A stretch of 64,000 nucleotides of DNA from Bidens hawaiensis (lineage: Eukaryota; Streptophyta; Magnoliopsida; Asterales; Asteraceae): positions 1 through 64,000 of the forward strand of contig JAIQDT010005835.1 of NCBI GenBank assembly GCA_021521415.1, given 5' to 3'. Under the pieces are notes generated by a model that made no database searches, was not told the origin of the DNA, and saw only the letters and a list, made by a program, of their open reading frames with translations. The translations under genes and the position numbers were made by a program. Every line of letters begins with the position of its first letter. Position 1 is the stretch's first letter. This document shows positions 10,074 to 62,162 of this stretch, piece by piece.

Positions 10074-11196
10074 TCTACCTATACTATTAAAGCAATAAGT
10101 TTTTTGAAAACTTGACATTTTACTATTTGTCTATTTTCTCCTTTGCCAAAAATATCATGCACTCTTATAGTTTCTTCCTAATAAAAAAATTCATAATTCT
10201 ATTTAAAATACTTTTACACAGACCCATTTAAACATTTTATAACCCGTTTACCCGATTTTAATTTATTACCCACATCTAATAATACTCACATTTGACCTTC
10301 ATCCCATTATTTTCGTTTAATTTTAATGGTAGCATCTCTAATTTAATATGAGAATTTAAGTATATTGAAATCAGTTTTTTTAAATATAATGTGTTTCTTA
10401 AATTAAATTTCAGTTATATCAAAATGTAACAACCTTCCATTATTACAAAGAAAACCAAAATGAAAATCATTTTTTGACCTCTCTATATATACTTTCATTT
10501 TCACTAACGAATTCACACATCCTCATCGTTTCAACCTCTTAAGCATGTAACCTTTGTTTTTGTTATTGTTATTATTAGTATTATAGTTATTGTTCATACC
10601 ATATGAATATCAATTTAACATTATGATTGTGTTGTTTCTATTTTTTAACATCATAGTGGAGTCACAAACATAATCATGTTGAATGACTTGGATGCCCTCA
10701 AGAATGATTCTATTCTCATGGTTCAGATTTATAATTTTATGGCGTTTGAAGGACAATAAATGCTTTTTACTATGGCGTTTGACATTTAATGTCTTGAAGG
10801 TCTTTCATGTAGTAACTGATTTTCTACTACATTTATTTCTTATAAATGCAGCTGGTGAGTCAATGGATGCCTTTCATTTCAAGTTGTAAGGATTTACATA
10901 GGTTGAGTGTCACACCCAACCTAAGACGGAAATGTCGGGGCGTGAGCTGATTGTCACAGCTCTCAAGGTACTAACATGAAATATTTAAATGACAATATCT
11001 ATTAATTGAATTCAATTATCAAATAAATTACATACAAACAAGTACATAATTCATACAACAATACAAATTTTATATTTCTTGATTAAAATATTCTTCTAAC
11101 TAAATTCTTCACTAAGTCTTCACCAACCTGCATTAAATTCTACGATAACCTGCATATGCGTATAAAACAGAATATTTGGTCAACAACACATGTTGA

Positions 11197-11607
11197 GTGA
11201 GTAAAACACCAGTTTAAGACACAACAATAATAATATATAGTATATAAAGAAAGATGCAAACTGTTCCTGTGAGAATAAACAGTTAAGCCATATCACATAA
11301 ACAATCAATCAAACAATCTAGAAAGAAAGCAAACCATAAGGAAATGGCTCAACCAATCCATATAAATGGACATTGGTTACCAAATGAAGAACTAAACCGT
11401 TGCCATAAAAATGGACATCGGTTGCCGAAGTAAGCAAACAACGTTCAAATAAAGCAAGTAAGCAAATAGCAAGTTAAGCATAAACTGATATACACACAAG
11501 GATTAACAGTTGCGGTTTTGGATACTAGATAATAGTTAAATATATAAAGATACGCACATGTCCCCAAAACGGTTAAAAATAAGTAAAATATGGGAGTGAT
11601 TACTCAC
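11197..11607. other. Inverted-repeat domain enclosing hairpin units (LTR copy 1)
   Basis: GTGAGTAA (11197-11204) pairs perfectly with TTACTCAC (11600-11607) across about 395 bases. Inside are two related hairpins of about 44-base period: AACCAAT...ATTGGTT (11351-11378) and AACCG...CGGTT (11395-11423), both with loops containing AAATGGACAT. The same arrangement is present in the other LTR and, with different sequence, in the element at 50523. Confidence 0.6.
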
Positions 11608-12184
11608 CTGATCAAGTAAGCAAATCGGGAATGAATACGACAAGAAAGCGATAACCACGCTCGACGAGGTATACCAACAAACGAATTTACTAAGTAATAA
11701 TAATTACGGGAATTAAATAAGAATTCAACAACGAAACTAAAAATAAATAGAGATTCGGGATTTAATGATCTAACGGGTTCTTGCGAAAGTTAAAATAGAT
11801 TTATTATTAATTTTATAAAGTTTTATCATATATAATATGATTTAATTATATAAGTACCCAAAAATACTTAAATAAATATTTATAAAGATTTTATAGTTTA
11901 CATATAGAGATTCATTTTAAATAAATTTATTTAAAACTAAAAATACACCTTATGTTTTTATGTATATTCTTATTATTAGTAAGGACTTCTTTATAGGTAA
12001 ATACAGTAATAAATAATAACAATATTTATATAAATTTATGAACTTTTATAAAAACTTGAACTATAGTTTTAATACATGATTTTAACAATAAGTTTCAAAT
12101 ATCTATATAAATTAACAATATCTTATTAAATATATATTTTAGATTAAAACTATTTTTATATATTAAAACTCTTTAATAAACCAT

Positions 12185-12221
<37 letters not shown>

Positions 12222-12360
12222 CGTTTAACCAAAGTTTGGAAAAAGGATCGGTTTATATGTCGGTTTTAATAGAATAACGTTTATTTAATATTTAATATTA
12301 ATATAATAATCATTTGATCCTTTGAAACACTTAAAAAAATAAAAGAACTAAAAAAGAATT

Positions 12361-12433
12361 GGCCGAGGCTCGAACCTGGGCCTCAACCGGTTCAGAGTGT
12401 TAAGACACGCACCCACGACCAGCTGAGCTGGGG
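12361..12433 (-). other. tRNA-like block in LTR (copy 1)
   Basis: On the minus strand AGCTCAGCTGGT resembles a tRNA D-arm/A box. About 45 bases later GGTTCGAGCC matches a B box, with GTGTCTTAACAC between them. The acceptor ends do not pair well and a G run disrupts the 5' side, so it is not a working tRNA. It may be a tRNA-derived internal pol III promoter relic. Confidence 0.45.
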
Positions 12434-13929
12434 GGGGGGTCAGTTTGGTAAAGAATGAGAACATAACTTTATATACAAACAATTAAGATAACAAATCAGT
12501 TAGAACCCTAAACTTTCCAATTTATCAAATCGCTAATCGATCGATAAATTAACATTGGGGTTATTAGAGAGGATTCAAAGACAAACTTGATCCATATATT
12601 TAATTACCCGATTCACTAATTCTTGATAACGAATTAAGAACGACAAGCGGCGGCCCTAAAACGATCCTGAGTACGATAACCAGTTGATGTTACTTCAATT
12701 GAGATTAAGGGTTTTATTGGCGATATCTTAAGAATGGTGAATGTAGGTTTAATTGAATTTTGGTGGTTGTTACCTTGAATATACATGAACGGGTAAAGAC
12801 GGTTTTGATAAAATATTAATACGTATAAGTTTTGATTTCGTTTTCTTAATTAACAATGTCGGCGATGACTATTTAGGCAAGAAAATCACCATACATTAAT
12901 CAATTTCCAATTTTGAAGCGAAGATTAAGGTCCAAGCTAAGTAAACGGGTCATGGGTTTAAGAAATGGATCGGGTTTGGTACATGGGTTACTGAATTGGA
13001 ATTTTAATAATATATATATATAGTATTTACATTATGGTCCCCGGAGATTTAAGGTGGAAGCAATTTGAGTTAAAGTTTTAGTTTGGGTTAATTTTGTCAA
13101 AATGTGAAAGTTATAATTATATAAATTATAAGTAACTAAACAATAATATAACAATAATTAATCTTCTCGATAAACACGATAATTTTATATATAAAATTTC
13201 CTGAAAATGAAACGGGTCGGGCTATATAAACTGGTAAAACCGAGTTGTTATAGTCTTCCCTACTTTAAGGAATTTCATCCCGAAATTAAAGGATACCATA
13301 ACAAATCCATTAAGTATTTGAGGAAAAGAAAAACTTTAAATAAAATTTAAAAATTTATCATAGTACAGAACTTTGAGTAGTCAAAACAACGCTCTAAATG
13401 CAAATCCGATAAGGGCACTTATATATAGGATGTACCTGCGGTGTATCCACCATGTCCTTATCATCTTTACATTTGTACCGTTATCTCAACCACTTTCGGT
13501 TCTTTATTATAACACACAATCTTACGCATCATGATTTCCATGCGAGGCTTTCAATAATTATGTTCCGGACCATATGTTCCGGACCGTAATTATTTAGATC
13601 GTCGGATGGTCCACATAACTTGTCTTATCGTGTGGGTTTACAAAAACATGTGAAAATATAATTTTAATAATAGAAATCCTTTAGGGAAAAGATTTTAAGT
13701 GAGATGTTTTTAAATAAACAAAAGTTAATAGTTTGGTGATTAAGAATGGGGAATTTTATAAAACCACCATATGATAATTTTAAACTCTACTCGAGAGGCA
13801 TAATAATAGGAAATCTTAATTAGTATTTAAAAAATTTATAAAAACATTAATTCAAAATTTATTAGATAGTCGATACGAAGCAAAAATATAATTCAACTAA
13901 GATAGAATACGACAAGCGACAAAGTCTTC

Positions 13930-14406
13930 TTAGTAGCTTAAATCTTCAGTTGCACATGTCTTGGAACCCTGAAACTTGAGCATATTGAGTAATTTGATCC
14001 ATGAGAGCTTGAGCGGTTGAGGTGGATTGATTCCGCATTGCTTGAATAACTTGAGCGTGAATGGTTTGCAAGAGGGTGGTTTGGTTAGAGTAGGTTTGGT
14101 AAACTTGAGCTTGCGGGTGTGGTATATGCAAGGACGATCGAAGCGATCACATTGGGTGAAAAAAAAACGACATGAGGATAGAGTCGAATGATGAAAGTTA
14201 CTAGTGGGGCATAACGAGTGAAATACCGATGAAGAGTTTCTTGCTCGGGATACTTTGATTTTGTCGAGGTTTATGATTGATTTGATTAACATCATAGTTT
14301 TTATGATTAGACTTGCATTTGTTGTTGTTGCTGCGAGGATGAGTAGGGGTAAATTAATTAAAATTTTTATCAAGGAAGATAATGAACAAGTTTGAATTGG
14401 TTGCAT
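13930..14406 (-). pseudogene. Degenerate coding remnant, possibly gag-related
   Basis: A 158-codon frame and an overlapping 61-codon frame lie in the internal region of the LTR element. The shorter one (13946-14131) is Gln-rich, with blocks such as IHAQVIQAMRNQ and AQALMDQITQYAQ that look helical. The longer has no recognisable family. Given position and strand it may be what is left of gag, but I cannot confirm this. The rest of 13253-15604 shows no coding potential. Confidence 0.3.
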
Positions 14407-15604
14407 TAATGTATTGAATTTGAGTTTATATTTTAGAGGTTGCAGCAGTTAACTCCTTGGTTGTACACGCGATGGTTATGAGAACTAGATTATTGATGTC
14501 GAGGACGACGGTGAATTTCTTAGAGAAGACATTCTATGAGGATCAAAAATAACAATTTATAATATGAAGGATTAGTTGCGGAAATCATTTAAATAATACA
14601 AGTTTAATTGTTTTATAGTAACTTTGTTTTTAAGAAATGGGGAATTTGTGTCGTATCATGAGGAATAAAGATAAAGTTTATAAGGTAAGGGGTATATAGC
14701 GTAAATAGTTTTTAGATGGTGTAGTCAATATGATTAAAGTGTGATGATTACACGAGGAGAAAAGTCAATTTAAAAATTTAGATTTTTATTTAATTAAGTT
14801 TACAATAAACTAACGAAATATAAATTGTGGATGTTAGCCTCCCATTAGCTTTCTATGGCAATTTGAATGGCCCAACGAACTAACGAATAAAATAACTGAG
14901 TTGGACAGCCCATGAGTGTTACATGGCAATTTGATTGTCCCAACTAAATAACGAATTAACAATGCAATGAAGTTTGTCGGCCCGATGAGCGTTACATGGC
15001 GTTTTAAACGACCAAACTAAATAACGAACTAACGAAATAAAATTTGGGTAATTGGAGTATCTCGTGAATCACCACATAGGATGACCCTAACAAAAACATA
15101 AAACAAAGTGAGAAAATAGTCGGGATTCCCGACTAACCATGAAAAATAATGTAGAAACCATAATCGGAAGGTTACCGAATTTAAGCCACGAATCACCGTG
15201 GATTCGATTTAAAAACAACCTAAGATGTCGGTCGTATGACAGTTGTGTTACTCTTTGGTCGAGAGGAACTTGTCATGCTACCTAGCCTTAAGATGAAGGA
15301 GTAAAAAAAAATAGGGAATTCTTAAGGAATTTCCCAAAAATAAAAGGCAATATAATTTAATTTAAAACATTTATGAAAAATTTTCTTTGAAGGTTGAGGC
15401 ATAGCCTCGGAGTTGTGTGTGTGTGTGCATAACAATATAATAATAAGAATAATCATTATTTAAACAGTTAAATAAGTACTTAATCTAACAAGCAATTACG
15501 TAAGCTGTAACAATCAAATAGAACACATCAGGTAAAAAAATAAGCACGTACGGGGCTCCTAAGCATGTTACTAGGGCACCACTAACAACCTATCTTAAAC
15601 CTTC

Positions 15605-15617
15605 GACTCTGATACCA
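15605..15617 (-). other. Primer binding site, tRNA-iMet type (minus)
   Basis: GACTCTGATACCA is the reverse complement of TGGTATCAGAGTC. It lies three bases from the right LTR and sets the element's orientation as minus. Confidence 0.8.
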
Positions 15618-15620
15618 ATC

Positions 15621-16902
15621 TCTCACACCCCAACTTAAGGCGGAAATGTCAGGGCGTGAGCTGATTGTCACAGCTCTCAAGGTACTAACATGAAATATTT
15701 AAATGACAATATCTATTAATTTAATTCAATTATCAAATACATCAAATACAAACAAGTACATAATTCATACAACAATACAAATTTTATATTTCTTGATTAA
15801 AATATTCTTCTAACTAAATTCTTCACTAAGTCTTCACCAAGCTGCATTAAGTTCTACGATAACCTGCATACGCGTATAAAATAGAATATTTGTCAACAAC
15901 ACATGTTGAGTGAGTAAAACACCAGTTTAAGACACAACAATAATAATATATAGTATATAAAGAAAGATGCAAACTGTTCATGTGAGAATAAATAGTTAAG
16001 CCATATCACATAAACAATCAATCAAACAATCCAGAAAGAAAGCAAACCATAAAGAAAGGGCTCAACTAATCCATATAAATGGACATTGGTTACCAAAGCA
16101 AGGACTAAACCGTCGCCTTAAGAATGGACATCGGTTGCCAGAGTAAGCAAACAACGTTCAAATAAAGTAAGCAAGCAAATAGCAAGTTAAGCATAAACTG
16201 ATATACACACAAGGATTAACAGTTGCGGTTTTGAATACTAGATAATAGTTAAATATATAAAGATAAGCACATGTCCCCAAAACGTTTAAAAATAAGTAAA
16301 ACAGGGGAGTGATTACTCACCTGATCAAGTGAGCAAAGCGGGAATGAATAAGACAAGAAAACGATAAACCACGCTCGACGAGGTATACCAACAAACGAAT
16401 TTCCTAAGTAAAAATAATTACGGGAATTAAATAAGAATACAACAACGAAACTAAAAATAGATAGAGATTCGGGATTTAATGATCTAACGGGTTCTTGCGA
16501 AAGTTAAAATAGATTTATTATTAATTTTATTATCAAAGTTTTATCATATATAATATGATTTAATTATATAAGTACCCAAAAATACTTAAATAAATATTTA
16601 TAAAGATTTTATAGTTTATATATAAAGATTCGTTTTAAATAAATTTATTTAAAACTAAAAATACACCTTATGTTTTTATGTATATTCTTATTATTAGTAA
16701 AAACTTCTTTATAGGTAAATACAGTAATAAATAATAACAATATTTATATAAATTTATGAACTTTTATAAAAACTTGAACTATAGTTTTAATACATGATTT
16801 TAACAATAAGTTTCAAATATCTATATTAATTAACAATATCTTATTAAATATATATTTTAGATTAGAACTATTTTTATATATTAAAACTCTTTAATTAACC
16901 AT

Positions 16903-16933
<31 letters not shown>

Positions 16934-17966
16934 TGCTTTTAACCAAAGTTCAGAAAAAAGATCGGTTTATTGTCGGTTTTAATAGAATAACGTTTATTTA
17001 ATATTTAATATTAATATAATAATCATTTGATCCTTTGAAACACTTAAAAAAATAAAAGAACTAAAAAAGAATTGGCCGAGGCTCGAACCTGGGCCTCAAC
17101 CGGTTCAGAGTGTTAAGACACGCACCCAAGACCAGCTGAGCTGGGGGGGCGGTCAGTTTGGTAAAGAATGAGAACATAACTTTATATACAAACAGTTAAG
17201 ATACCAAATCAGTTAGAACCCTAAACTTTCCAATTTATCAAATCGCTAATCGATCGATAAATTAACATTGGGGTTATTAGAGAGGATTCAAAGACGAACT
17301 TGATCCATATATTTAATTACCCGATTCACTGATTCTTGATAACGAATTAAGAACGGCAAGCGGCGGCCCTAAAACGATCCTGAATACGAATACTAGTTGA
17401 TGTTACTTCAATTGAGATTAAGGGTTTTATTGGCGATATCTTAAGAATGGTGAATGTAGGTTTAATTGAATTTTGGTGGTCGTTACCTTGAATATACATG
17501 AACGGGTATAGACGGTTTTGATAAAATATTAATACGTATAAGTTTTGATTTCGTTTTCTTAATTAACAATGTCGGCGATGACTATTTAGGCAAGAAAATC
17601 ACCATACATTAATCAATTTCCAATTTTGAAGCGAAGATTAAGGTCCAAGCTAAGTAAACAGGTCATGGGTTTAAGAAATGGATCGGGTTTGGTACATGGG
17701 TTACTGAGTTGGAATTTTAATATAATAATATATATAGTATTTACATTATGGTCCCCAGAGATTTAAGGTGGAAGCAATTTGAGTTAAAGTTTTAGTTTGG
17801 GTTAATTTTATCAAAATGTGAAAGTTATAATTATATAAATTATAAGTAACTAAACAATAATATAACAATAATTAATCTTCTCGATAAACACGATAATTTT
17901 ATATATAAAATTTCTCGAAAATGAAACGGGTCGGGCTATATAAACTGATAAAACCGAGTTGTTATA
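15621..17966 (-). repeat. 5' LTR of the 10908-17966 element
   Basis: It matches 10908-13252. The GTGAGTAA/TTACTCAC pair is at 15910-15917 and 16313-16320. A (TA)n tract lies at about 16905-16933 and the tRNA-like block at about 17072-17146. One terminal base differs (TCTCACACCC against TGTCACACCC). Confidence 0.85.
17072..17146 (-). other. tRNA-like block in LTR (copy 2)
   Basis: It is the same A-box-like and B-box-like arrangement as at 12361-12433, nearly identical in sequence, with one difference in the middle (CACCCAAGACC for CACCCACGACC). Confidence 0.45.
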
Positions 17967-18886
17967 TTGAGGTTATGAAACATGTCTCATTCACAAAGGA
18001 TATCTAAGTTATACATTGCATTGGTCCAATATACCATGCAAATAAGATTCTCTTGAATAATTAGTTATTTTTGAATCACACTTTCTATGTTGATTACAAC
18101 CTAACTGAAAACAATACAAAACTTTACTACATTTTTATTGTGTTATCGAACCCACATTGTAATTTGATTATTTTTGAATTAATACCGATTGATTGATAAC
18201 CTATTTTTAAATTTTGTGGATAAGAGCAAGTGGGGTTGTTTTTTCTTCTACATATAAAAGCTAAATTTATTATTATTGTTGTTAATATGACTACTACAAT
18301 AACTATTATTATTTGATTTTTTTAGGAAATCTGGTGATAATCAGTTAGAAATTGAGTTTTGGTTCATCATTTTATCAAGGTTATATTGGATTAAGATATT
18401 AAAATCAAAACCATCATTCAATGGTTTGTTTATATGTTTCAAGATATTTTGTTTAGAAAACACGTTGACTTCGTTATTTTGAATGATGGCATTATTAAAT
18501 TTCCGGGTTTACATGGTTAACAAGGTAGTTTGTAACAATAACGAAACTAGGAATTATAATGAATATATAACAATAATAGAAGACGATTTACAACATTTTC
18601 AAGATATTTCAAGATGCACGCTTGACTTTGTTATTTTGAATGTTGGTATTATTAAGCTGTTAAACCTACAATAATGACCATTTACAACATTCTAATACCT
18701 AAAATATCATTATGCTCTATGTATAGCTAATTGCTTAAAAATCAACTTAAGATTTTGTATTGTATATAAATAAAATTTTGGTATTAAAATATTACCTACA
18801 TTTAAAAAGTATATGCTTGAATCCTAAATTATGAGATACATCTTTTCATGTATCTATCTTACCATGCATCTATCTTACTGGTAATG

Positions 18887-18998
18887 ATGTATTCTTCGTT
18901 TCAATAGCTTTTCGTGGAGTATTTCTATGTCTTTTGTTAAATATGTATTCTTCGTTTCAATAGCTTTTCGTGGAGTATTTCTATGTCTTTTGTTAAAT
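18887..18998. repeat. Perfect 56-bp tandem duplication
   Basis: The unit starting ATGTATTCTTCGTTTCAATA occurs twice head to tail without a visible mismatch inside the Helitron, which suggests a recent slippage event. Confidence 0.85.
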
Positions 18999-19797
18999 AT
19001 GTAATCTTTTAAGGTTGTTTTTTATAATCCATGTAGAACATTTTGTTAGGCCTACTTTATGGTGTTAAAAATAACTACTTTTTGATGTTTTTGAGGTTAC
19101 TTATGTCTAAGATCATAATATTTATCCATAGGAAAGCTGAATTTACTTGCACAAATTCATAATTTTTATGAATTTTTTTGGTAAATTCATTAATATAGAT
19201 CTATGAAAAGTATTACTTTTGAGTACCCAGTAGATTAGTGTAGGAACTGGAACATTGAAGACCCTTTTAGAAAGATTAATGTGTCGATAGTAGTTTTTTT
19301 TAAAGTATATGTAAATTGTGGTTAGGAAGTAGAATAGACATGGATGTTATGAAAAATTGTTAAATTGTCATTTGGTTTATTGTAGACAAATGTAATCCCA
19401 CTCAAAGTACTAATGACTTTCCCTTATTCGTATTCTCTATTATTGTATATTTCTGGAGTAAAGACATGTAAGTTTCTTATATATTTTTTTATTAGTTTTC
19501 TATTATGTATCAGAGATTGATTTGAAGAAAGGATAAACAATGAGGATTGGTCGATTACAAAAGAGTAGTTGGAAAAACAGGTCAAAGTCAAAAAGGTGAT
19601 AACTTTGACGCTAAGAAGCTTAAAACAATTTATGATTTTTAGTTTTTAATTTTTCAAACCATGTAAAACCATAATTTTGCTTTGAACTATTGTAATATAC
19701 TAGGCGGTTTTATTTTTATCATTTTGTTGTTTATACGTTTAAGACTTACGAAATTTATATTGTTCAACCCGTGTAATACACGGGTACATAACCTAGT

Positions 19798-20367
19798 GTT
19801 GTTTTATAAAAAAATATTGAAGCTCTTTAAGACCTGATTTTTAAAGGTTGAAAAGAAAACAAAGTCTTAAGCATATTATATAAATCTTCATCTCATAATA
19901 CAAGTCTTAAGCATATTATATTAATCAACTTTAAATATGTTAATTTTAATTTCATAAAACCTTATAGATTTCTCGTCTAATCACCTCCGTAAAGTTATGA
20001 TTTTACCAACTAAGTAAAAGCCATTTTAAAATATTTCAAATGTTAATTTGATTAATTTATATTTTAGTTTTAATTCCGGTATCTTAATGAACGTAGTCGA
20101 TATCAACCAAACTCGCGCTGACTCATTACTGCAATGTCGGAATTTTACTGACCGAATAAGCATTTTCTTTAAATATGCTAACATTTATATCAAGGTATGC
20201 GAGTCACTGTTATTCTGAACGTTTGCTATTTTATTTTCTGTGTTTAATACTGATATCATAACGAACGTAATTGGCTGATTTAGTGTCACTTCGTTCATAA
20301 GTTTTACGGCTGCAGATCCTGTTTTTACAAGTTAAATTTTTTGATTTAGAGGCGGTTTAATAGTCTC
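19798..20367. other. AT-rich intergenic sequence
   Basis: It contains a partial tandem repeat of AAGTCTTAAGCATATTATA (about 19864-19925, 40-base period). I see no gene or element ends. Confidence 0.5.
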
Positions 20368-20371
20368 TTTA

Positions 20372-20732: not shown

Positions 20733-20736
20733 TTTA

Positions 20737-21117
20737 ACAGTCGACGCGTTATTTTGCATTTGGCAAACGGAGTGAAGAAACCTGCCAATTTTCCCGTAGT
20801 ATCTCATTTGTCGGGCATCACAATTGCATCTCGCCTATCACCACCCCAAATCCCCGATTTCTTTATAGTTTATACATTAGCATATTTTAACAATAACAAT
20901 ATCTCGCAATCCCACCCTTCCAATTACTTCCATTAAAGTTTTGTCTCAACCGGAACCATGCATACCAGGTGTTCGACAAAATGCTTCACCTAAAATAAGA
21001 AAACCAAACCCCTTTTAGTTTAGCCCTTAACATCACTCAATGCAAAGTTACATATATTCTTCATTAGATTTTGTGGTTTCAGGGTTCATCCAAACCACAT
21101 AAATAAATGGTTCAATC
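20737..21117 (+). other. Upstream region/5' leader of the YqaJ-like gene
   Basis: No clear TATA box is seen. A TTTGTGGTTTCAG at about 21068-21081 could be a splice acceptor just before the coding exon, which would make part of this an upstream intron. A 69-codon frame from 20727 is not recognised. Confidence 0.3.
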
Positions 21118-21957
21118 ATGCTATCAATACCATACCGCCTCGGTTATTGTTGTTGCACAAGATTTCTATGCACCACAACCCAGCATCCTGTTCTCGAATC
21201 AATCAGTTTCAAACACCCGTTCAAAAACTGGCATGACCAAAGAACACACAAGCTCACCGCCAGCACATTCGCACAAGCCGTCGGCTTTTGGCCCAACCGC
21301 AGGGTCCTCCTCTGGCTAGAAAAGATAGGCGCAGTCGAACCGTTCGCAGGGAACCTCGCCACGTGCTGGAACAACATCAAAGAACACCAAGCACTCGAGA
21401 GATACAAACTAATAACCGGAAACCCCGTCACATTATCTGAATTCCAAGTTAATGTGAGCTCAAACCAAGAACACAGCTGGCTCGGTGCGTCCCCTGATGG
21501 AATAATTAACAGAAAGCTTTACGCTTTACCTTGCAGAGGGATATTAGAAATCAAATGCCCGTTTTATAAAGGCGATATGAGAAAGGGTTTCCCGTGGACT
21601 GGTGTACCGTATAATTATGTTCCACAAGCTCAAGGCTTGATGGAGATACTGAACCGGGATTGGATGGATTTTTATGTTTGGACTCCCAAAGGTAGTAGTA
21701 TAATTAGGATAGATAGGGATTTGGAGTATTGGAAGGTGTTAGAGCGCGCGTTATCTGAGTTTTGGTGGGATCATGTGCAGCCTGCACGCCAGATTTATTG
21801 TAAATATGAGGTTAGAGATCCGGTAACCGAGTTAAAAATGTTTTGCCCCGAGCCAAAGCATCAGTTATGTGACCATATTGTTAAAGAAAGTAGACGTGTA
21901 GCGGGTAATTCGAGGTTGTTGATGCGTGAATTTTTTGGGAAGTTGAGAGATTATTAG
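21118..21957 (+). CDS. YqaJ-like PD-(D/E)XK nuclease family protein
   Basis: This 279-residue protein fits the plant 'restriction endonuclease type II-like' / YqaJ exonuclease family related to phage recombination exonucleases. In order: THKLTASTFAQ (about 44-54), a helix with EHQALERY (about 88-95), GASPDG (123-128) with candidate metal-binding Asp127, GILEIKCP (141-148) with Glu144 and Lys146 of the E-x-K core, and PQAQGLMEI (169-177). The family core residues are present, so nuclease activity is plausible. The ATG at 21118 is the first Met after an in-frame TAA 21 bases upstream. The first 35 residues are Cys/Ser/Thr-rich and could be an organelle-targeting peptide or a mis-spliced stretch. 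The coding exon is uninterrupted. Nearby repeats lie outside it. The plant role is not established, and this is the only intact host-type gene seen. Confidence 0.8.
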   Translation: MLSIPYRLGYCCCTRFLCTTTQHPVLESISFKHPFKNWHDQRTHKLTASTFAQAVGFWPNRRVLLWLEKIGAVEPFAGNLATCWNNIKEHQALERYKLITGNPVTLSEFQVNVSSNQEHSWLGASPDGIINRKLYALPCRGILEIKCPFYKGDMRKGFPWTGVPYNYVPQAQGLMEILNRDWMDFYVWTPKGSSIIRIDRDLEYWKVLERALSEFWWDHVQPARQIYCKYEVRDPVTELKMFCPEPKHQLCDHIVKESRRVAGNSRLLMREFFGKLRDY

Positions 21958-22703: not shown

Positions 22704-22711
22704 ATCTACCA

Positions 22712-23815: not shown

Positions 23816-23905
23816 ACAAAAAGACTTTCTTTATTACATATAGTTCCTGATTGGATGTGAACAAATCATTTTATATGGATCGAGTTAATTGTACAAATTT
23901 CTTAC

Positions 23906-42269: not shown

Positions 42270-42275
42270 AGTTTT

Positions 42276-49514: not shown

Positions 49515-49525
49515 GCCATGGGTAT

Positions 49526-50517: not shown

Positions 50518-50522
50518 GAATT

Positions 50523-53500
50523 TGTAACACCCCGCAACCGCAGCGGAAACGTAAACGGGATGCGACAGACACCTCTGATATCAACCACATTGTTTATAAA
50601 GAAAACTGAATGCATTAATATACTTCAAAATTACATTATCTCATCTTTCATTACCGTCTAGGTGATACACACATCATACAATACGATTCATAATTCTATC
50701 TGTTATAATGTATCCTAACATCCCGCACACAAATCTTACACACATCAAGCACTTAGCTCGTAAGCAATCACTTCATCTAAATTGTACCTGAAAAGCATGT
50801 GAGAAAACGGGTCAACTACGAATAGTTGGTGAGTTTCACAATTTTAGTAAACCATTATAAATCCATATCATAATATAATGTTATCTGGGGACACTGTTAA
50901 CCCAGTACTGTACTCACTCCGGGGACACTGTTAACCCAGAAACACATCCAATAACCTCTGGGGACACTGTTAACCCAGAAACACATTTAATACCCTCTGG
51001 GGACACTGTTAACCTAGAAACACATTTAATAACCTCTGGGGACACTGTTAACCCAGAACACTGTTTCGGGCCTTACACTGTTAGCAACTCAGACAATTAC
51101 CATCTTAATACATTACCGTACGATTCCCGTACAATAAACATTATATAAATACATTTATTTCCATGCGATCAGCGTGTACTTAAACATTTTAATAGAAACA
51201 TGCTTTCCGCCCCGGGAAAATAATTAAAACAGTTCAGTAAAAAGGGGCTCGTGAAACTCACCTTAGAACATGCAAGCAGGTAACAACAATCATTATCAAT
51301 TAACGCGTCCAATCTGTAATATGATTCCTAAGATCGTTATTATACACTTATTGTTTATATAATCTTTTAACCATATCGACTGGTACATCTGGGGACACTG
51401 TTAACCCAGCACTGTACCCGTTCTGGGGGCACTGTTAACCCAGAAACACATCTCCGGACTCAGATTGTGATGTCGTTTAGAGTTCCATGGTCAAAACTAC
51501 TATTAGTCGTTTTTCTCGTTTTGCGTGCCTAGCACGGTTATCCGTTTTTAGGTTTCAAAAATGAGTTTGGTCACACACGACCCGAAAATAGTGGTTGACT
51601 GACAATTTAATTAAAAATGTGAAATTATAGCTCGGTTTAGACGTCCCGATTGGCCGCGGAACCCGTTTCCGTCTTTGGCGTACCGGAAACTGTTAAAATA
51701 GGTTAAAATTACTCAAATCATCCGAATTATTTTCGGATGATTCATTTTTACTTGTTTAACTCAATTATATGAAAATAGTTCATTTTTTAGGTTTTTTTAT
51801 ACACCAGTCAGCTCGCTTAAGCGAACTTCACCGGTTTACGCGTTTTAACTTTAAAAGTTTGATAATTAGCACAAATAATTATCCGTCTAATCTCGGATCT
51901 TGAAATTTTGCACAAATCACTTCTTGACAGTGGGGAATTTTATAAAAATATTTCCAGAATTAATTTCTATATTTAAAATTTATTTATCTATTTTTAAACA
52001 CCATTTAAACACTAAATATGTCGTAAATACCAAACGACCTTAGAAAAATCCCAAATTTTTCCTGGATGTCCCCTGCCATCCACATAGTCCCCTGTAATTT
52101 TTTCAGAACCAAAATCTTCTTTTACATGCCATTTTCACTAAAACCGAGCTAGAATCCCTAGAACTCGTTTAACCGAAAAGCCTACTTAGACTTCTCCAAC
52201 TAACCTCAAATTTTGTGTGTGACTGATACATGATATAAAAAGCTTATCTGCAATTTTCCAGAATTTTTCATGACATTTAACTATTTTTCACCATTTTTGG
52301 CCAAAACCGAGCATTAAATTAACCAAATATTCATCCTTTTCCAAAAATTACCAAAAATTCACAGAACTCTTATTTTCATGTGTAGAACATCCCTGTAAAA
52401 TTTCATGACCTAACTCTAAACGACCAACAATCTGTCAAAAAACACATACACCGACATAAACCGAATATACCTTTCGTTTTCCGCCACTACTAGCTACAAA
52501 CTCGTCTTTCCGCCTTATCTACCACTAAACACAGAGCCTACAAACAACATACCACAATACCAAGCAAGTCACACTCACGATCAAGCCATTTCTTTCATGG
52601 TTACGGTTATGATACAAAAACAAAGATTTAAACCGTAAAAATTCGTTCTTGGTTCGTTTAACCCCTTTCTTGGACCAAGATCCCTTGTATAACCCGTATA
52701 CATCACTTGATCATGCAAGAATCGGTTTTCATCTTTGAAACCTCATTTTCTTGCAAATAAACTCAAGAAACGAAGATGGAAACGTATATAATTCGATCTT
52801 TACCTTGTTTTTCTTGCTCCAAATCTCGGTTTTTAGTTCATGAAATTGAGAGGAATTGATGAAGCTTGTGGATTGTTGATTGAAAAAAGAAAAAAAAAGA
52901 AAATGAAGGCCAAGAGGCCGATCGGAATCCCATAAAGGGTGGGGTGGGACCCACATGTTCATTCTTGGCCACTCATTTGGATTTCCGTAATCTGGATAAT
53001 GTTTTGGATAATCTGGTTCAGTTCGTTTTTTGGTTAAACGTTTAATTCGGCTTAAAACGAGGCTAAAACGGTCTTTTTCGTCTTAAAAATGAAATTTATA
53101 TAAAACCGATTTAAAAACTTAAACCATGACATTTATTAACTTAAAACGTCATATTATTAGTTATTATGCATCTTTTTCGGCTTGATCGATCGTCTCTTGC
53201 TCGGTTTGGTATTAAAGGTTTCGTTTAACGTACCGACGTACTATTAAATCGAAATCCTTTTTCTGTGCTTTAATCCACTTATCCCGAAGCTTTAATACTT
53301 CGTAACATCACTAAATATCATATATCTCGTCTATAATTGAACCCTCGATTCATTCGGGTTTCAATAACTATCGATCGTTTGGTCGCATATTCAATACGGT
53401 GAATTATATATTCACGTAAAATCAATACAATGAACCATGTTTTCTCGTATAATTACCATGGTAACTCATGTACCCGACATTAAGTATGACGTAACTATTG

Positions 53501-53542
53501 TCTACCGGTTAGGGTATACCGGGTTTCGTCGGAATCGTTACA
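50523..53542 (-). repeat. 3' LTR of the chromovirus (3020 bp)
   Basis: It runs TGTAACACCCCGCAACC to GGAATCGTTACA. It holds the closing stem GGTGAGTTTCAC/GTGAAACTCACC (50828-50839, 51251-51262) and the GGGGACACTGTTAACCC array. The short ORF at 52729-52962 is in repeat sequence and is not called. Confidence 0.9.
50828..51262. other. Inverted-repeat domain enclosing hairpin array (LTR copy 1)
   Basis: GGTGAGTTTCAC pairs perfectly over 12 bases with GTGAAACTCACC, enclosing 411 bases. Inside, at about 50886-51064, five units of roughly 36-44 bases carry the core GGGGACACTGTTAACCC with CTGGG/CCCAG arms. Two more units lie outside at about 51389-51455. The matching domain in the other LTR is at 59445-59879. 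Confidence 0.65.
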
Positions 53543-54620
53543 TTCTCCCCTCGTTAAGAAATTTCGTCCTCGAAATTTTACACGCTCACTAACCCTTTCC
53601 GAGAGAAAGGTGGGGGTTTTTCCTTCAGAATACACCCTCGCGTTACCAGGTATAATCTGGTCCTCGCTGTGAATTCCACTTAATCTTAATCAATAAAGCT
53701 TGGTGTGCCCAAACTGTTTAGTTTTCCCGTCTACTATCTCTACGGAATTATTTATGATATCAAGTATGACTTCTATGAGTACCTCCATTACTAGTACTTT
53801 CGTTGCCTCATCGCTTAGGTACTTTTCAATCCGTATACATGGCAAAACATCATGTATAGTACTTAGCCCCTGGAATACTTTAATCAATAAACTAAGTGAC
53901 CAATCATGGAGATAGTCCCATGAGGCCCAATATATTAAGGAGCTATTTTCGGTTTTGGCAAACCTCATATCACCTCTCTAAGGTGATGCCTTAAAAATGC
54001 CTTGTCACCTCTTTCCAATGACAATGGTTTCCTATGAATGTTGGCATAAATCCTTTGCCAATCTCGCGATGCTTTCAACTCATCTTAAATATTATAAATC
54101 CGATTGGTTGTTTCTCGAATCAATTCAAATCTTATGGCTTGATTGACGCCCATTTTCAATTTACAAATTGATGATAATTACTTCACCCATAGAAAGCTTC
54201 AAGCTCTCGATGCTTCCTTCCCCGCCTTCCAATAATGAAAGTAGGATGACTATTTCGATCTGAGATCATTGAAAATGGTACTCCACGACGAGATACCATT
54301 TCACCATCAGGAGTTTGGGCGAGAATTCATTGTGGTAATCGTCATAGATTGGAATGAAATGCGAGGATTGGTTAATCGATCCGCGATTACCCAATTGTAC
54401 TCATGCCTTTGATATATCTTGGGAATTTGCGTCCCGAAATCCAATGTAATTTATTCCCACTATCATTGGCGACTTTTCTGTCGTTGTGGCGTTCCCAAGG
54501 GTTTTCGGTATGTAGCCTTATCTCTTGCACAACTTAAATATTCACCAACATACGTAACCATATCTTTCTCCAAACTCGGCCGTTAATAAAATCCTTTCCG
54601 ATATTCGTATCATCAATAGT
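53543..54620 (-). pseudogene. Chromovirus integrase/C-terminal remnants
   Basis: Next to the polypurine tract, 53690-53968 keeps the YLSDEATKVL...NNSVEIVDGK pattern of the segment before a Tekay chromodomain. About 54060-54480 keeps scraps of the core (VSRRGVPFSMISDRNS, WISGRKFPRYI). Stops are too many for any function. Confidence 0.65.
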
Positions 54621-55016
54621 CTAATCCGATCCCGGATGTATGGAATATTTCGATCTATGTGCTTCGTCCATGATTACTTCACGAAGGTCATGGAGGGTCG
54701 GGATCCAAACCCGATCTTTGAAATAGAGAATTTCGTCCACGCGCTGGTCGAAATTCTTCTCGTTGCCGTAAAGTTCCTCCTTTTCCAATTGTTCCTCTTT
54801 CAACGTCTCACGTTGGGCGACTCGAATCAGGTCCGAGAGATTCGACTGGACTATCATCCCCAGTGCTCGCACTCGCAATGGCTTAACCCGATCTTTCCTA
54901 CTCAAGGCATCGGCTACGACGTTAGCCTTGTCGGGGTGGTAACGGATGTCACAGTCATAATCGCTTAACAACTCGACCCCTCTTTCGTTGAATATGAGAC
55001 TGTGGTCTCTTATCAT
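54621..55016 (-). pseudogene. Chromovirus RNase H end and integrase start
   Basis: This 131-codon frame begins in the RNase H tail (LLSDYDCDIRYHPDKANVVA) and runs into the integrase N-terminal region (RVWIPTLHDLREVIMDEAHRS). Block order is normal for Ty3/gypsy pol. Confidence 0.85.
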
Positions 55017-55955
55017 CTATAAAGTTTGTACATTTGCGTTGTAAAAAGGATTATGAGTTGGGTAATGCTAGAAATTCTTCAATAAACCGCTGATAATCTC
55101 CGGCTAGTCCTAAAAATTGGCGCATTCCCTATGGCGCCTTGGGTGACTGCCAATTTTAATGGTTTCTATCTTATTTGGATCTATGTGAAATCCTTGTTGC
55201 TTTACAACATGACCAAGGAATTATGCCTTCTTTATTCAAAATCACATTTCGAAAACTTCGCGTACAACTCCTCTTGCTTTAACACTTCCACAATTTTCCT
55301 TAACCGTCGTTCGTGCTCTTCTTTACGTTGCGAATATATCAAAATATCATTAATGAATTTTATGAAAAAATTTGTCAAAATAAAGTTTACAGACTCGGTT
55401 CATGAGTTCCATGAATGCTGCCGGCGCATTTGTTAGCCCGAAAGGCATAACTAAAAATTCATAATGGCCGTAGCGAGTCCGAAACACTGTTGTTGCAACG
55501 TCCTCCTCTTGGATTTCTCATTTGGTGATAACTATATCTAAGATCAATTTTCTAAAAATAAATCGCCCCTTGCAGTTGATTAAACAGATCATTCACTTCG
55601 AAAAAGTGAGTACCTACTCTTGATCGTCACTTTATTCAATTCTCCCTAATCAATACATATCCTAACACTTCCGTCCTTCATTTCCCAAATAACACTGGTG
55701 CACCCCATGGTGACTAACTAGGTCGTATAAAACCTTATCCAATAATTCTTGCATTTCAGTTGGTGTAAGTCGGTAAGATGCTTTAGCAACAGGGCCAGCT
55801 TGAGGCATTAAATTGATTCCGAATTTGACATGTCGGGTTGGCGGTAATCCAGGAAGTTCTTCTGGGAAAACTTGTGGAAATTCGCGTACCACCGGGATAT
55901 CTTCTGTATGTTTTCTTTTAAATACTTTGGCAAACGCGTTTGTTAAATACACCAC
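55017..55955 (-). pseudogene. Chromovirus RT and protease-RT linker
   Basis: 55662-55955 has VVREFPQVFPEELPGLPPTR and ASYRLTPTEMQELL, the linker and start of RT. 55017-55661 retains [18 protein letters not shown], but the YVDD region is mutated and frameshifted (reads near YFDIFAT). No active site remains. Confidence 0.8.
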
Positions 55956-58900
55956 GTCTTCTTGTCGTAAATACTATAACATCTCCAAATGAGATTAGAG
56001 TGGTAACATAATACCGTACACTTTTCTCTGTATCTAATCGCTTCATCGTCCGAAGGAGAGCTTCTAATCATCTTCTTTTCATAATTGATTTCAGCTTCAT
56101 GTCGAGTTAGCCAGTCCATGTTAACTATTACGTCAAACTTCTTAACTTTACTGGTCGTAGGTCAATAAGGAAAGGTTAATCGTTCAGAATAATAGGACAA
56201 TTCCGAACAATTTAGTTAACCATTAGGGGTTTACCGTTAGCGATTCTACAGTATAGGGTTCTATAGTTTCACTAATCGGTATCTTTCCAAATGATAGGAG
56301 GTTAACAGGAGCTAACTTCTATCGACGACCGTAAAAATATCGCTGAAGTCTATTGATTTAAAACTACAACGTACTTAATACCACTTTTGGATCATGACTT
56401 GCTTTATTTGAATTACTCCCAAAAGCACGGCTCCTTGCTTGATCAGAGGTTGATGCTTGTCATGAGGTTCATCTTCCAACAACACCTTGGTTCAACTTTG
56501 GGCAATTTCTCTTGAAACGTTCTGTACTGCCACATTCCTAACAAGTACAACTGTTTGGCATAATTTGATTTCTTTGGATGGATTGTTATTGAAGTTGTTG
56601 GGTTCGGAGTGGTTGTACACGATTGGGTTGGGGTTGTCGGTTCACATGGCTTCACTTGGTTCTACAATTGTGGCATTACGTCCATCTTTACTACACCTGT
56701 GGCCTACTATCACTCGACATTCTTCTTCCTGCCGATAACCATATTTTCCACATTTAGGGAAGGACCCTTTATGCGGTCATGTTTTCACACCAGAACTAGT
56801 CTTAGTATAATTCTGGGTTGTAGGACTTACCTACTTATTCAAAGGCCTATCTTGCACTATGCCTTTATCACTTCTCTTCTTTAACACCCGACGTCTCACC
56901 TAACGTCCTTCCAGTCCGCTTCCCATAGAGTTAAATATATCGATGCTGGCTTGTGACACAACCTTTCCAAAGGTTGTATATTTTACCGGATTGACTATAC
57001 TCCTTATCGATGGAGTTAGTCCCCAATATAGCGCTCACTTCGCTTAGTTTCAGGGGTAATTAGCCATGTTACCAGACATGACAATTCCTTCAAACTATTA
57101 GCGTGTTCTAAGTAATCAGCACGCAACATTTCTATTTTTTTTTATAGCTCAGTTCCCAATCCCTGAACTTAATTACTCGAATAAAAGCGCTCTAGCACAA
57201 GAATTTTAAATTCCGACCATGTCCTCTGAGCAAAAATTTTCTAACAATAATTTTGTACCATCGTGTTCCATCACGATACAACATAATCTACCAACATATC
57301 TGTAGCATATTTCACTACACAATGTTCTAGTCTCTTACCAATATCCTTAACCATTTCGATCTTTTCTATCTACTCGTTAATCTATTCCTCCCTTTACCAT
57401 CAGTACCCTATTAATAATTTCCTTAACACAATCAACAGACATATCCTTCATACCGGATCTAATTCATTACGACTACTATTCATGTTTAGTTTATAACTAA
57501 TACTAGTAGTCATAATAGTATTCGGTGGAAATTATCACTTTTAGTAATACCACCAAGAATTGAAATATTCATATTCATGTGATTGCTCGATCTACAATCT
57601 TGCGATCACATTTGTATCAACACTAGCAGTGATCTGTGATACGACATTCGGTATCATCATCTGCTATCTTTGAGCAATCAACTAAATCATATCAATCTCC
57701 ATCATTGGAGTTACTCTTTTTATGTCATTCTGCCGTACTCATCCCGTACGCAGTAATCAATACTAATCTCACCGTATAGCTCGTCACCAGCTCAATCAAA
57801 ACAGCAGGTACACATACACACCAAATATTATCATACATATTACACATACCAGTATCTAGTATATATGTCCTATAAATATAATAACATATGGACTTAACCT
57901 GACGTCGGTTAACGTTTAAATATGTTTTATAACCCTTGTCACCAACTGACATATAGATCTTTCTCAACAAAGATTAATGTTTAATATACTTGATTTCAAT
58001 ATCCTTCTGCATGTCAGCATAACCGATACATGCTCACCGTGAGCACCAAACGATTACGTACCACGGAGTTATAATATCCGTGTCTATTCGTATATCCGGT
58101 ATACACGGTATACCACCTACGAATGAATAACCAACTATGCTATAATGATTCCAACACCTCTTTGTGTATGGGTAATCATTCTATTCGAGTATACATGGGT
58201 ATAGGCATCTAACGGATGTAAGGATAGCATAGGGAGTTGCAAAGTTCAAGGTAATCGTGCAACATGGGTTGCCTTCAAATATTATCAATTACTATTATGG
58301 GAAACTCTATCGTTTGCTCAGTCAATGTCCTCCGGCGTTCTAGGTTTGCTAAAATCGGTAATTCTCGATCTGGAAGTGGTATGACTCATATGTTTGAGAG
58401 TGAGAAATACATATATATATTTCTTTGTATTATTTTTATCTGCCCATTTATTATCAAATTCATTATTATTATTATTTTATTTTATTTACTTATTTATTTA
58501 TTTATCTTAATGGAATGAGAATGGGTTCAGGTACAGGTCCATCCGTACGTGAGGGTCAGCGGTTCGGGTGAACATATGGGGTTATTAGGATATACGGTAC
58601 CGGTGTTGGTAGGGTAGGGGATTTATCAATTTCGGTTGGGAGTGACGGTTACTAGATATTTCTGGTTAATGTCAATCGGGAGATCTAACTTGGTACTATC
58701 ATAACTATGACCCGATAAGTCAGACTCATCATCAACCGATGCTCTTAGAAATTTCAGCATCCTCGGTACTTTTATTATCTCATCCCCCGGTTCCTTATCC
58801 GGGTCCCATTTCTCAATACATGTACCCACAAGATATGTACATATATATATATATACACATTAGCACGTATAAATAATATTATATACTTTACACATATGTT

Positions 58901-59120
58901 GCCATTTTTACCTATTAATGTACCCCGTGACTTCCCCTGAATTCCCTCGTGCGAACAAGTCTGTTATTATGTTCCGGACCATAACAACTCACTTGTCCAT
59001 CCAAGTTCATCCAGACCTCGTCACTATAAATTATTAGTTGATATTCAGATCCTATAATACTTGAGCTACTGGTTATATTTTAGGTATCTTTTAAAGACAT
59101 CCTAATTCTTTTATAACCAA
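55956..59120 (-). pseudogene. Decayed protease, gag and leader of the chromovirus
   Basis: Near 56120-56145 a DWLTRHEAEI block marks the end of the protease. Near 56700-56760 CGKYGYRQEEC and VGHRC are a damaged zinc knuckle. Toward 57480 a start-like MNSSRNELDPV precedes scraps of gag. From about 57500 to 59120 I see only a non-coding leader with a TATT-rich patch (58440-58505). Confidence 0.5.
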
Positions 59121-59121
59121 T

Positions 59122-59134
59122 GGCTCTGATACCA
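59122..59134 (-). other. Primer binding site, tRNA-iMet type (minus)
   Basis: GGCTCTGATACCA is the reverse complement of TGGTATCAGAGCC and lies five bases from the right LTR. Confidence 0.85.
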
Positions 59135-59139
59135 AGTTC

Positions 59140-62100
59140 TGTAACACCCCGCAACCGCAGCGGAAACGTAAACGGGATGCGACAGACACCTCTGATATCA
59201 ACCACATTGTTTATAAAGAAAACTGAATGCATTAATATACTTCAAAATTACATTATCTCATCTTTCATTACCGTCTAGGTGATACACACATCATACAATA
59301 CGATTCATAATTCTATCTGTTATAATGTATCCTAACATCCCGCACACAAATCTTACACACATCAAGCACTTAGCACGTAAGCAATCACTTCATCTAAATT
59401 GTACCTGAAAAGCATGTGAGAAAACGGGTCAACTACGAATAGTTGGTGAGTTTCACAATTTTAGTAAACCATTATAAATCCATATCATAATATAATATTA
59501 TCTGGGGACACTGTTAACCCAGTACTGTACTCACTCCGGGGACACTGTTAACCCAGAAACACATCCAATAACCTCTGGGGACACTGTTAACCCAGAAACA
59601 CATTTAATACCCTCTGGGGACACTGTTAACCCAGAAACACATTTAATAACCTCTGGGGACACTGTTAACCCAGAACACTGTTTCGGGCCTTACACTGTTA
59701 GCAACTCAGACAATTACCATCTTAATACATTACCGTACGATTCCCGTACAATAAACATTATATAAATACATTCATTTCCATGCGATCAGCGTGTACTTAA
59801 ACATTTTGATAGAAACATGCTTTCCGCCCCGGGAAAATAATTAAAACAGTTCAGTAAAAAGGGGCTCGTGAAACTCACCTTAGCACATGCAAGCAGGTAA
59901 CAACAATCATTATCAATTAACGTGTCCAATCTGTAATATGATCCCTAAGATCGTTATTATACACTTATTGTTTATATAATCTTTTAACCATATCGACTGG
60001 TACATCTGGGGACACTGTTAACCCAGCACTGTACCCGTTCTGGGGGCACTGTTAACCCAGAAACACATCTCCGGACTCAGATTGTGATGTCGTTTAGAGT
60101 TCCATGGTCAAAACTACTATTAGTCGTTTTTCTCGTTTTGCGTGCCTAGCACGGTTATCCGTTTTTAGGTTTCAAAAATGAGTTTGGTCACACACGACCC
60201 GAAAATAGTGGTTGACTGACAATTTAATTAAAAATGTGAAATTATAGCTCGGTTTAGACGTCCCGATTGGCCGCGGAACCCGTTTCCGTCTTTGGCGTAC
60301 CGGAAACTGTTAAAATAGGTTAAAATTACTCAAATCATCCGAATTATTTTCGGATGATTCATTTTTACTTGTTTAACTCAATTATATGAAAATAGTTCAT
60401 TTTTTAGGCTTTTTTATACACCAGTCAGCTCGCTTAAGCGAACTTCACCGGTTTACGCGTTTTAACTTTAAAAGTTTGATAATTAACACAAATAATTATC
60501 CGTCTAATCTCGGATCTTGAAATTTTGCACAAATCACTTCTTGACAGTGGGGAATTTTATAAAAATATTTCCAGAATTAATTTCTATATTTAAAATTTAT
60601 TTATCTATTTTTAAACACCATTTAAACACTAAATATGTCGTAAATACCAAACGACCTTAGAAAAATCCCAAATTTTTCCTGGATGTCCCCTGCCATCCAC
60701 ATTGTCCCCTGTAATTTTTCCAGAACCAAAATCTTCTTTTACATGCCATTTTTACTAAAACCGAGCTAGAATCCCTAGAACTCGTTTAACAGAAAAGCCT
60801 ACTTAGACTTCTCCAACTGACCTCAAATTTTGTGTGTGACTGATACATGATATAAAAAGCTTATCTGCAATTTTCCAGAATTTTTCAAGATATTTAACTA
60901 TTTTTCACCATTTTTGGCCAAAACCAAGCATTAAATTCACCAAATATTCATGCTTTATCTAAAAATTACCAAAACTTCACAGAACTCTTATTTTCATGTG
61001 TAGAACATCCCTGTAAAATTTCATTACCTAACTCTAAACGACCAACAATCTGTCCAAAAACACATACACCGACATAAACCGAATATACCTTTCGTTTTCC
61101 GCCACTACAAGCTACAAACTCGTCTTTCCGCCTTATCTACCACTAAACACAGAGCCTACAAACAACATACCACAATACCAAGCAAGTCACACTCACGATC
61201 AAGCCATTTCTTTCATGGTTACGGTTATGATACAAAAACAAAGATTTAAACCGTAAAAATTCGTTCTTGGTTCGTTTAACCCCTTTCTTGGACCAAGATC
61301 CCTTGTATAACCCGTATACATCACTTGATCATGCAAGAATCGGTTTTCATCTTTGAAACCTCATTTTCTTGCAAATAAACTCAAGAAACGAAGATGGAAA
61401 CGTATATAATTCGATCTTTACCTTATTTTTCTTGCTCCAAATCTCGGTTTTTAGTTCATGAAATTGAGAGGAATTGATGAAGCTTGTGGATTGTTGATTG
61501 AAAAAAGAAAAAAAAAAAGAAAATGAAGGCCAAGAGGCCGATCGGAATCCCATAAAGGGTGGGGTGGGACCCACATGTTCATTCTTGGCCACTCATTTGG
61601 ATTTCCGTAATCTGGATAATGTTTTGGATAATCTGGTTCAGTTCGTTTTTTGGTTAAACGTTTAATTCGGCTTAAAACGAGGCTAAAACGGTCTTTTTCG
61701 TCTTAAAAATGAAATTTATATAAAACCGATTTAAAAACTTAAACCATGACATTTATTAACTTAAAACGTCATATTATTAGTTATTACGCATCTTTTTCGG
61801 CTTGATCGATCGTCTCTTGCTCGGTTTGGTATTAAAGGTTTCGTTTAACGTACCGACGTACTATTAAATCGAAATCCTTTTTCTGTGCTTTAATCCACTT
61901 ATCCCGAAGCTTTAATACTTCGTAACATCACTAAATATCATATATCTCGTCTATAATTGAACCCTCGATTCATTCGGGTTTCAATAACTATCGATCGTTT
62001 GGTCGCATATTCAATACGGTAAATTATATATTCACGTAAAATCAATACAATGAACCATGTTTTCTCGTATAATTACCATGGTAACTCATGTACCCGACAT

Positions 62101-62162
62101 TAAGTATGACGTAACTATTGTCTACCGGTTAGGGTATACCGGGTTTCGTCGGAATCGTTACA
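59140..62162 (-). repeat. 5' LTR of the chromovirus (3023 bp)
   Basis: It differs from the partner LTR at few positions by eye. The closing stem is at 59445-59456 and 59868-59879, with the hairpin array at about 59502-59685. All array units match the other LTR, apart from one unit repaired to AACCCAG. Confidence 0.9.

What the first reader, a model, noticed from the sequence alone, without database searches (positions are those of the whole stretch)
10908..62162. Covarying closing stem around hairpin arrays in two LTR families
Four LTRs share an architecture. In the 10908-17966 element GTGAGTAA pairs with TTACTCAC (11197/11600 and 15910/16313). In the chromovirus GTGAGTTT pairs with AAACTCAC (50828/51251 and 59445/59868). 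Stem positions 7 and 8 are A-T in one family and T-A in the other, so pairing is kept while sequence changes. Each stem encloses 395-411 bases with family-specific hairpin units. This suggests a conserved folded domain in LTR RNA (packaging, polyadenylation or dimerisation) or a cruciform.
Basis: partly seen in the sequence, partly recalled or inferred. Interest (0 to 1): 0.75.

Follow-up and report, generated by a model that had tools for sequence, protein, structure and literature searches.

The report
Probable intron inside retrotransposon LTRs
The two short matching arms in these plant retrotransposon repeats look less like a conserved RNA stem than like the two ends of an intron lying wholly inside the repeat, a layout that could let one RNA serve as genome (unspliced) and another as messenger (spliced), but no RNA data were available to prove splicing.

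Summary
The arms are real, at essentially the stated places, in all four LTRs. Both elements are encoded on the minus strand (PBS). Read that way, one arm is a full-consensus splice donor (CAG/AAG|GTGAGT); the other lies 41-47 bases before a CAG|GT acceptor, with a TTGAC branch-point-like motif between them. MAG|GTRAGT occurs four times in 64 kb, exactly at these four sites, sense strand only. The 3' half of the module has 36,291 hits in this genome (4,101 and 32,190; backward controls 1 and 0). AG precedes GTGAGT in 77 of 83 scored copies, against 22 of 245 other GTGAGT in the same loci. The claimed covariation fails: position 8 changes independently on the two arms; position 7 shows one joint change plus two breaks. 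A role for pairing is not excluded: the 12-bp chromovirus stem is predicted to form (24 of 24), the other family's is not (0 of 19). Two searches for spliced-out LTRs found none, against 768 unspliced counterparts of one of them. Best reading: an LTR-internal leader intron, retained in the RNA genome. No transcript evidence.

The parts
10908..13252 (-). Element 1, 3' LTR (sense = minus strand)
   Evidence: direct repeat of 15622-17966, spacing 4713; TSD TTGAG at 10903-10907 and 17967-17971
15622..17966 (-). Element 1, 5' LTR (first base approximate)
   Evidence: PBS TGGTATCAGAG on minus at 15607-15617 beside it
11150..11607 (-). Predicted intron in element 1 3' LTR, 458 nt: CAG|GTGAGTAATC ... 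TATGCAG|GTTATC
   Evidence: splicing itself inferred
15864..16320 (-). Predicted intron in element 1 5' LTR, 457 nt
11600..11607 (-).
11197..11204 (-).
16313..16320 (-). Donor arm, element 1 5' LTR
15910..15917 (-). Partner arm, element 1 5' LTR, 46 nt before the acceptor
11179..11195 (-). CAAC-n-GTTGAC small hairpin with TTGAC branch-point candidate (A 30 nt from the intron end)
   Evidence: branch-point consensus recalled
50811..50828 (-). CAACTATTCGTAGTTGAC small hairpin with TTGAC (A 24 nt from the intron end)
50523..53542 (-). Chromovirus-type element, 3' LTR
   Evidence: direct repeat, spacing 8617; TSD GAATT at 50518-50522 and 62163-62167
59140..62162 (-). Chromovirus-type element, 5' LTR
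   Evidence: PBS TGGTATCAGAGC on minus at 59123-59134
50788..51261 (-). Predicted intron in chromovirus 3' LTR, 474 nt: AAG|GTGAGTTTCA ... CTTTTCAG|GTACAA
59405..59878 (-). Predicted intron in chromovirus 5' LTR, 474 nt
51251..51262 (-). Donor arm GGTGAGTTTCAC of the 12-bp stem
50828..50839 (-). Partner arm GTGAAACTCACC; its ACTCAC ends 41 nt before the acceptor
59868..59879 (-). Donor arm, chromovirus 5' LTR
59445..59456 (-). Partner arm, chromovirus 5' LTR
51353..51361 (-). TATATAAAC, TATA-like box 92-100 nt upstream of the donor (start site inferred; box present in only 8 of 24 scored chromovirus copies)
50885..51058 (-). Five copies of the GGGGACACTGTTAACCCAG-type hairpin unit (four at 39-nt spacing) inside the predicted intron

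Best explanation
Each LTR carries, in the sense orientation and near its 3' end, a complete U2-type intron (457-474 nt in the window, 389-508 nt in the scored copies): donor AG|GTGAGT, an ACTCAC box, a small CAAC/GTTG hairpin ending in a TTGAC branch-point candidate, and a CAG|GT acceptor about 240-265 nt before the LTR end. The 'closing stem' is the donor and the ACTCAC box. Inferred mechanism: RNA starts upstream of the donor; unspliced RNA keeps the whole R-U5 and is the template for reverse transcription, while RNA spliced in the leader is set aside as messenger. Pairing of the donor, either locally (GTGA..TCAC) or with ACTCAC, could lower splicing so that enough unspliced RNA survives. 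Shown: sequence signals, orientation, copy number, no spliced-out copy in two junction searches. Inferred: splicing, start site, use as messenger, masking.
For: Both elements minus-strand by PBS. MAG|GTRAGT 4 times in the window, all at the four donors, none antisense in the LTRs. Donor and acceptor occur together across divergent LTRs: 40 of 59 copies fetched by the 3' half alone have GTGAGT 250-530 upstream, 34 of those 40 with AG before it; 9 more have a recognisable mutated donor at the same place, 10 are not locatable. AG before GTGAGT 77 of 83 versus 22 of 245 others in the same loci; 117 of those 245 are the partner arm read on the other strand, none with AG, leaving 22 of 128. The A of AG (80 of 83) never pairs with its opposite base except none: 0 Watson-Crick or G-U of 83. 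Exon-1 ends differ between copies yet mostly keep AG|GT. The 3' module has 4,101 + 32,190 hits with backward controls 1 and 0. Branch-point candidate 24-30 nt from the intron end.
Against: No RNA data. No spliced-out LTR: 0 chromovirus, 0 element-1 type at up to 3 mismatches, which fits either non-packaging of spliced RNA or no splicing. Upstream ATGs are not concentrated in the intron: per base 0.024 intron versus 0.021 exon 2 in element 1, 0.032 versus 0.042 in the chromovirus, so splicing would not clear the leader of them. Within-family conservation of 11 splice-signal sites is not unusual (16% and 41% of shifted site sets are as conserved). The chromovirus intron is not U-richer than its flanks (T 0.35 vs 0.385 and 0.364), the element-1 one only modestly (0.452 vs 0.409 and 0.339). 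6 of 83 copies lack AG. A TATA-like box at the expected place is seen in 8 of 24 chromovirus copies and 0 of 59 others. Copies share ancestry, so they are not independent.
Confidence: 0.68

Rival explanations
1. The pairing itself is the selected feature: a long-range RNA helix closing a folded LTR domain (packaging, dimerisation or poly(A) control), with or without splicing.
For: Chromovirus 12-bp stem predicted in 24 of 24 copies on the sense strand; one joint A-T/T-A switch at position 7 and a pair there in 81 of 83; outer CAC/GTG complementarity in many diverse copies; palindrome-like donor arms (20 of 25 distinct arms with G-U allowed versus shuffle mean 6.4).
Against: Core predicted with p>0.5 in 0 of 19 element-1 and 4 of 40 diverse copies; position 8 varies independently; the A before the donor, TTGAC and CAG|GT are outside the helix.
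Confidence: 0.16
2. Donor without splicing: GTGAGT is kept as a U1 snRNP site that suppresses premature polyadenylation in the 5' LTR, as in foamy viruses, and is masked by structure in the 3' LTR.
For: Donor in the LTR with structural masking is described for foamy viruses (PMC3694450, abstract and section 11 read); the arm can pair locally or at a distance by prediction.
Against: Does not explain the branch-point-like and acceptor signals conserved 400 nt downstream. Poly(A) site not located here.
Confidence: 0.09
3. A palindromic protein-binding motif (GTGA-n-TCAC) present twice in the LTR, acting on DNA.
For: Both arms are individually palindrome-like.
Against: AG before one arm only (partner arms 0 of 117), strict order and sense orientation relative to the element.
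Confidence: 0.03
4. Chance inverted repeat carried by descent.
For: 8-mer inverted pairs are abundant in these AT-rich LTRs.
Against: Module shared by several sequence families, 36,291 hits versus 1 in the backward controls.
Confidence: 0.04

Closest known systems
Foamy virus LTR major splice donor and U1-controlled poly(A) choice (PMC3694450; abstract and one section read)
   Same: Splice donor inside the LTR; donor accessibility set by RNA structure.
   Different: From general knowledge, foamy virus acceptors lie downstream in the genome; here the acceptor too is inside the LTR. No U1 or poly(A) evidence here.
Introns of plant LTR retrotransposons: Ogre, EVADE, BARE1 (PMC12786077 and PMC3735527, passages read; the latter also names Bagy2 and CRR)
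   Same: Sense introns in plant elements that yield a second RNA class; in BARE1 only an unspliced transcript is thought to be replicated.
   Different: The introns described there are in or between coding regions, not in the LTR.
Diaspora, soybean Ty3-gypsy element (PMC1142308, passages read)
   Same: Predicted donors in a long LTR and acceptors near the gag start.
   Different: Prediction only, acceptors outside the LTR; its authors wrote in 2005 that no intron upstream of gag was reported for any LTR retroelement.
Cauliflower mosaic virus 35S leader donor (PMC4498817, passages read)
   Same: Leader donor in a plant reverse-transcribing genome; part of the RNA stays full length.
   Different: No LTR; main acceptor in ORF II.

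Membership tests
U2-type spliceosomal intron | AG|GTRAGT donor | tested here: met
U2-type spliceosomal intron | CAG|G acceptor with branch-point-like motif 18-40 nt upstream | tested here: met
   consensus and distance range recalled
U2-type spliceosomal intron | Plant intron richer in U than flanking exons | tested here: inconclusive
   modestly so in element 1, not in the chromovirus
U2-type spliceosomal intron | Spliced RNA or a reverse-transcribed spliced copy | tested here: inconclusive
   RNA not available; genome junction searches, not a test of RNA
Conserved RNA stem | Repeated compensatory changes | tested here: not met
   one joint change at position 7; position 8 independent; positions 1-6 not testable because selected on
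Foamy-virus-type LTR donor | Donor within R upstream of the poly(A) site | not testable with these tools
   no transcript ends; TATA-like box upstream of the donor in 8 of 24 chromovirus copies
Chromovirus (Tekay lineage) | gag-pol with chromodomain and Tekay-type RT | tested here: inconclusive

The most novel reading that the evidence does not exclude
A whole group of plant Ty3/gypsy-like elements carries a complete, regulated leader intron inside its LTRs, duplicated with every transposition and protected from loss because only unspliced RNA is reverse transcribed, with the donor masked by pairing to a box beside the branch point: a plant counterpart of the retroviral split between genomic and messenger RNA, at tens of thousands of places in one genome.
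Probability: 0.4. Interest if true: 0.8.

Novelty: new variant of a known kind. Interest (0 to 1): 0.6.

Why it matters
If spliced, these LTRs solve the messenger-versus-genome conflict by a cis-acting intron that a single reverse-transcribed spliced RNA would erase, so its persistence in thousands of copies implies strict exclusion of spliced RNA. It would also mean that such insertions, solo LTRs included, can bring an exon-intron-exon cassette next to host genes. It gives a testable alternative to reading inverted repeats in LTRs as RNA structure.

Tried and rejected
Folding test of the stem in flanking context: forms in the chromovirus, not in element 1 on the sense strand. In one search I mis-registered the chromovirus arms by one base in the folding part; corrected. 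Rfam: nothing at gathering in the two LTRs scanned, one sub-threshold match E 0.88. Viral contigs: 0 hits of one form of the 3' module. Covariation of the small CAAC/GTTG hairpin above its fixed core: 22 of 36 distinct forms keep a fifth pair, shuffle mean 16.4, maximum 26, so not convincing. Within-family conservation of splice sites: not significant. Upstream-ATG clearance as the benefit of splicing: not borne out. Pfam on the internal regions: one fragment in six pieces.

Rows dropped: L001-L004 (chosen by the pairing pattern) from all copy counts; L080 (my coordinate slip); 11 of 30 loci and 6 of 30 that did not hold both intact motifs; 19 of 59 pattern copies without intact GTGAGT (examined); 21 of 24 scored chromovirus copies left out of the tree. 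Where a locus had several GTGAGT in range I took one after AG; this touched one locus, L092, whose two candidates both have AG. The 19 element-1 and 24 chromovirus copies include the window's own LTRs.
Full report
What is there. The four LTRs belong to two elements with target-site duplications (TTGAG; GAATT). Primer binding sites TGGTATCAGAG(C) lie on the minus strand beside 15622 and 59140, so both elements, and the RNA that matters, read on the minus strand. The inverted arms are present as reported, with a 12-bp version in the chromovirus. On their own such arms are common in these LTRs.

Read in the sense direction. The arm at 11600-11607 reads CAG|GTGAGTAA and that at 51254-51261 reads AAG|GTGAGTTT. 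The motif MAG|GTRAGT occurs four times in the 64 kb, at the four LTR sites and nowhere else, always on the sense strand. The other arm, ACTCAC, is followed by a CAAC-n-GTTGAC hairpin and by TATGCAG|GTT or CTTTTCAG|GTAC; it ends 41 (chromovirus) or 46-47 (element 1) bases before the intron end, and the A of TTGAC is 24 or 29-30 bases from it.

Copies elsewhere in the same 3.47-Gb genome. The palindromic arm pattern of element 1 has 454 places against 27 in the backward control. The 3' module without the donor has 2,078 + 2,023 hits (control 0 + 1) in one form and 15,997 + 16,193 (control 0 + 0) in the other; the two forms exclude each other by one letter, and only the first 100 or so places of each were listed. 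These are counts of sites, not of elements. Arms with GTTG beside one of them at 400-430 nt: 2,757 against 83. Fifty-nine copies chosen only by the 3' module were read: 40 have GTGAGT 250-530 nt upstream, 34 of them after AG; 9 others have a mutated donor at the aligned place, five of these with the first G changed (L072, L089, L098, L110, L118); 10 could not be placed. Across all 83 scored copies AG precedes the LTR donor in 77; other GTGAGT in the same loci have it in 22 of 245, or 22 of 128 without the partner arms. In the stem alignment the A of AG is unpaired in 83 of 83; the G can pair by G-U in element 1 and by G-C in the chromovirus. The exon sequence before the donor comes in several types (...GATCAG...CTAAG...ATAAG...ATTGAG) that recur with different intron bodies.

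Covariation. On a tree of 62 copies, position 7 shows A-T in 50, T-A in 10, broken in 2, with one joint switch; position 8 is paired in 33 of 62 with 10 changes on the donor side and 7 on the other. Over all 83 scored copies position 7 is paired in 81 and position 8 in 54. Within the element-1 family 5 of 19 scored copies have T opposite T at position 8; among the 29 other copies aligned, 7 differ from the window at the donor-side position and none at its partner. Positions 1-6 were part of the selection and say nothing. Predicted folding on the sense strand: core pairing above 0.5 in 24 of 24 chromovirus, 0 of 19 element-1 and 4 of 40 diverse copies; local donor hairpin above 0.5 in 0 of 24, 6 of 19 and 8 of 40. 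Distinct donor arms form a GTGA..TCAC-type hairpin more often than shuffles (20 of 25 versus 6.4 with G-U allowed; 12 of 25 versus 2.0 without), which leaves room for donor masking.

Spliced-out copies. If spliced RNA were reverse transcribed, LTRs lacking the intron would appear. None was found for the chromovirus or for one common element-1 exon type with up to 3 mismatches, while the corresponding unspliced exon-donor pattern of the latter has 768 hits, control 0. The exon-2 half was not counted separately, and other exon types were not searched. This fits retention of the intron in the packaged RNA, but also no splicing.

Weak points. No transcript was seen. Splice-signal sites are not significantly more conserved than shifted site sets within either family. 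The chromovirus intron is not U-rich. Start and poly(A) sites are unknown; a TATA-like box 85-110 nt upstream of the donor is present in 8 of 24 chromovirus copies, 0 of 19 element-1 and 0 of 40 diverse copies.

Literature. Eight full-text searches, seen as listings, and passages of the 12 papers opened showed no report of an intron lying wholly in an LTR; most subscription papers are not held. A 2025 review says plant LTR elements generally lack introns, naming Ogre and EVADE as exceptions (PMC12786077, passages); BARE1 splices inside its coding region (PMC3735527, passages); Diaspora's authors knew of no intron upstream of gag in 2005 (PMC1142308, passages). Some insect endogenous retroviruses splice env from an exon upstream of gag (PMC12992720, passages). 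A review of human LTR12 says that LTRs do not usually contain splice sites (PMC11853044, passages). Foamy viruses have the major donor in the LTR and control it by U1 and RNA structure (PMC3694450, abstract and section 11), the closest mechanistic parallel.

Noticed in passing
50523-62162: The two LTRs are 99% identical over the 601 bases around the intron but the internal region has no ORF of 150 aa and one recognisable Pfam fragment in five pieces scanned: recently moved yet apparently coding-dead, perhaps mobilised by another element.
   Followed up: partly
LTR copies L005-L124, exon-1 end: Exon-1 end types recur with different intron bodies, suggesting recombination close to the donor, as template switching in R could give.
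   Followed up: partly
50885-51058 and 51387-51452: GGGGACACTGTTAACCCAG-type hairpin unit: five copies inside and two outside the predicted intron, with TTAA in the loop.
   Followed up: partly
21103-21957: Plus-strand 284-aa ORF that looked to me like a viral-type YqaJ exonuclease; recalled impression, not scanned.
   Followed up: no
13253-15605: Element 1 is short between its LTRs (about 2.35 kb) with one 172-aa frame without a Pfam match: looks non-autonomous, with 2.3-kb LTRs.
   Followed up: partly
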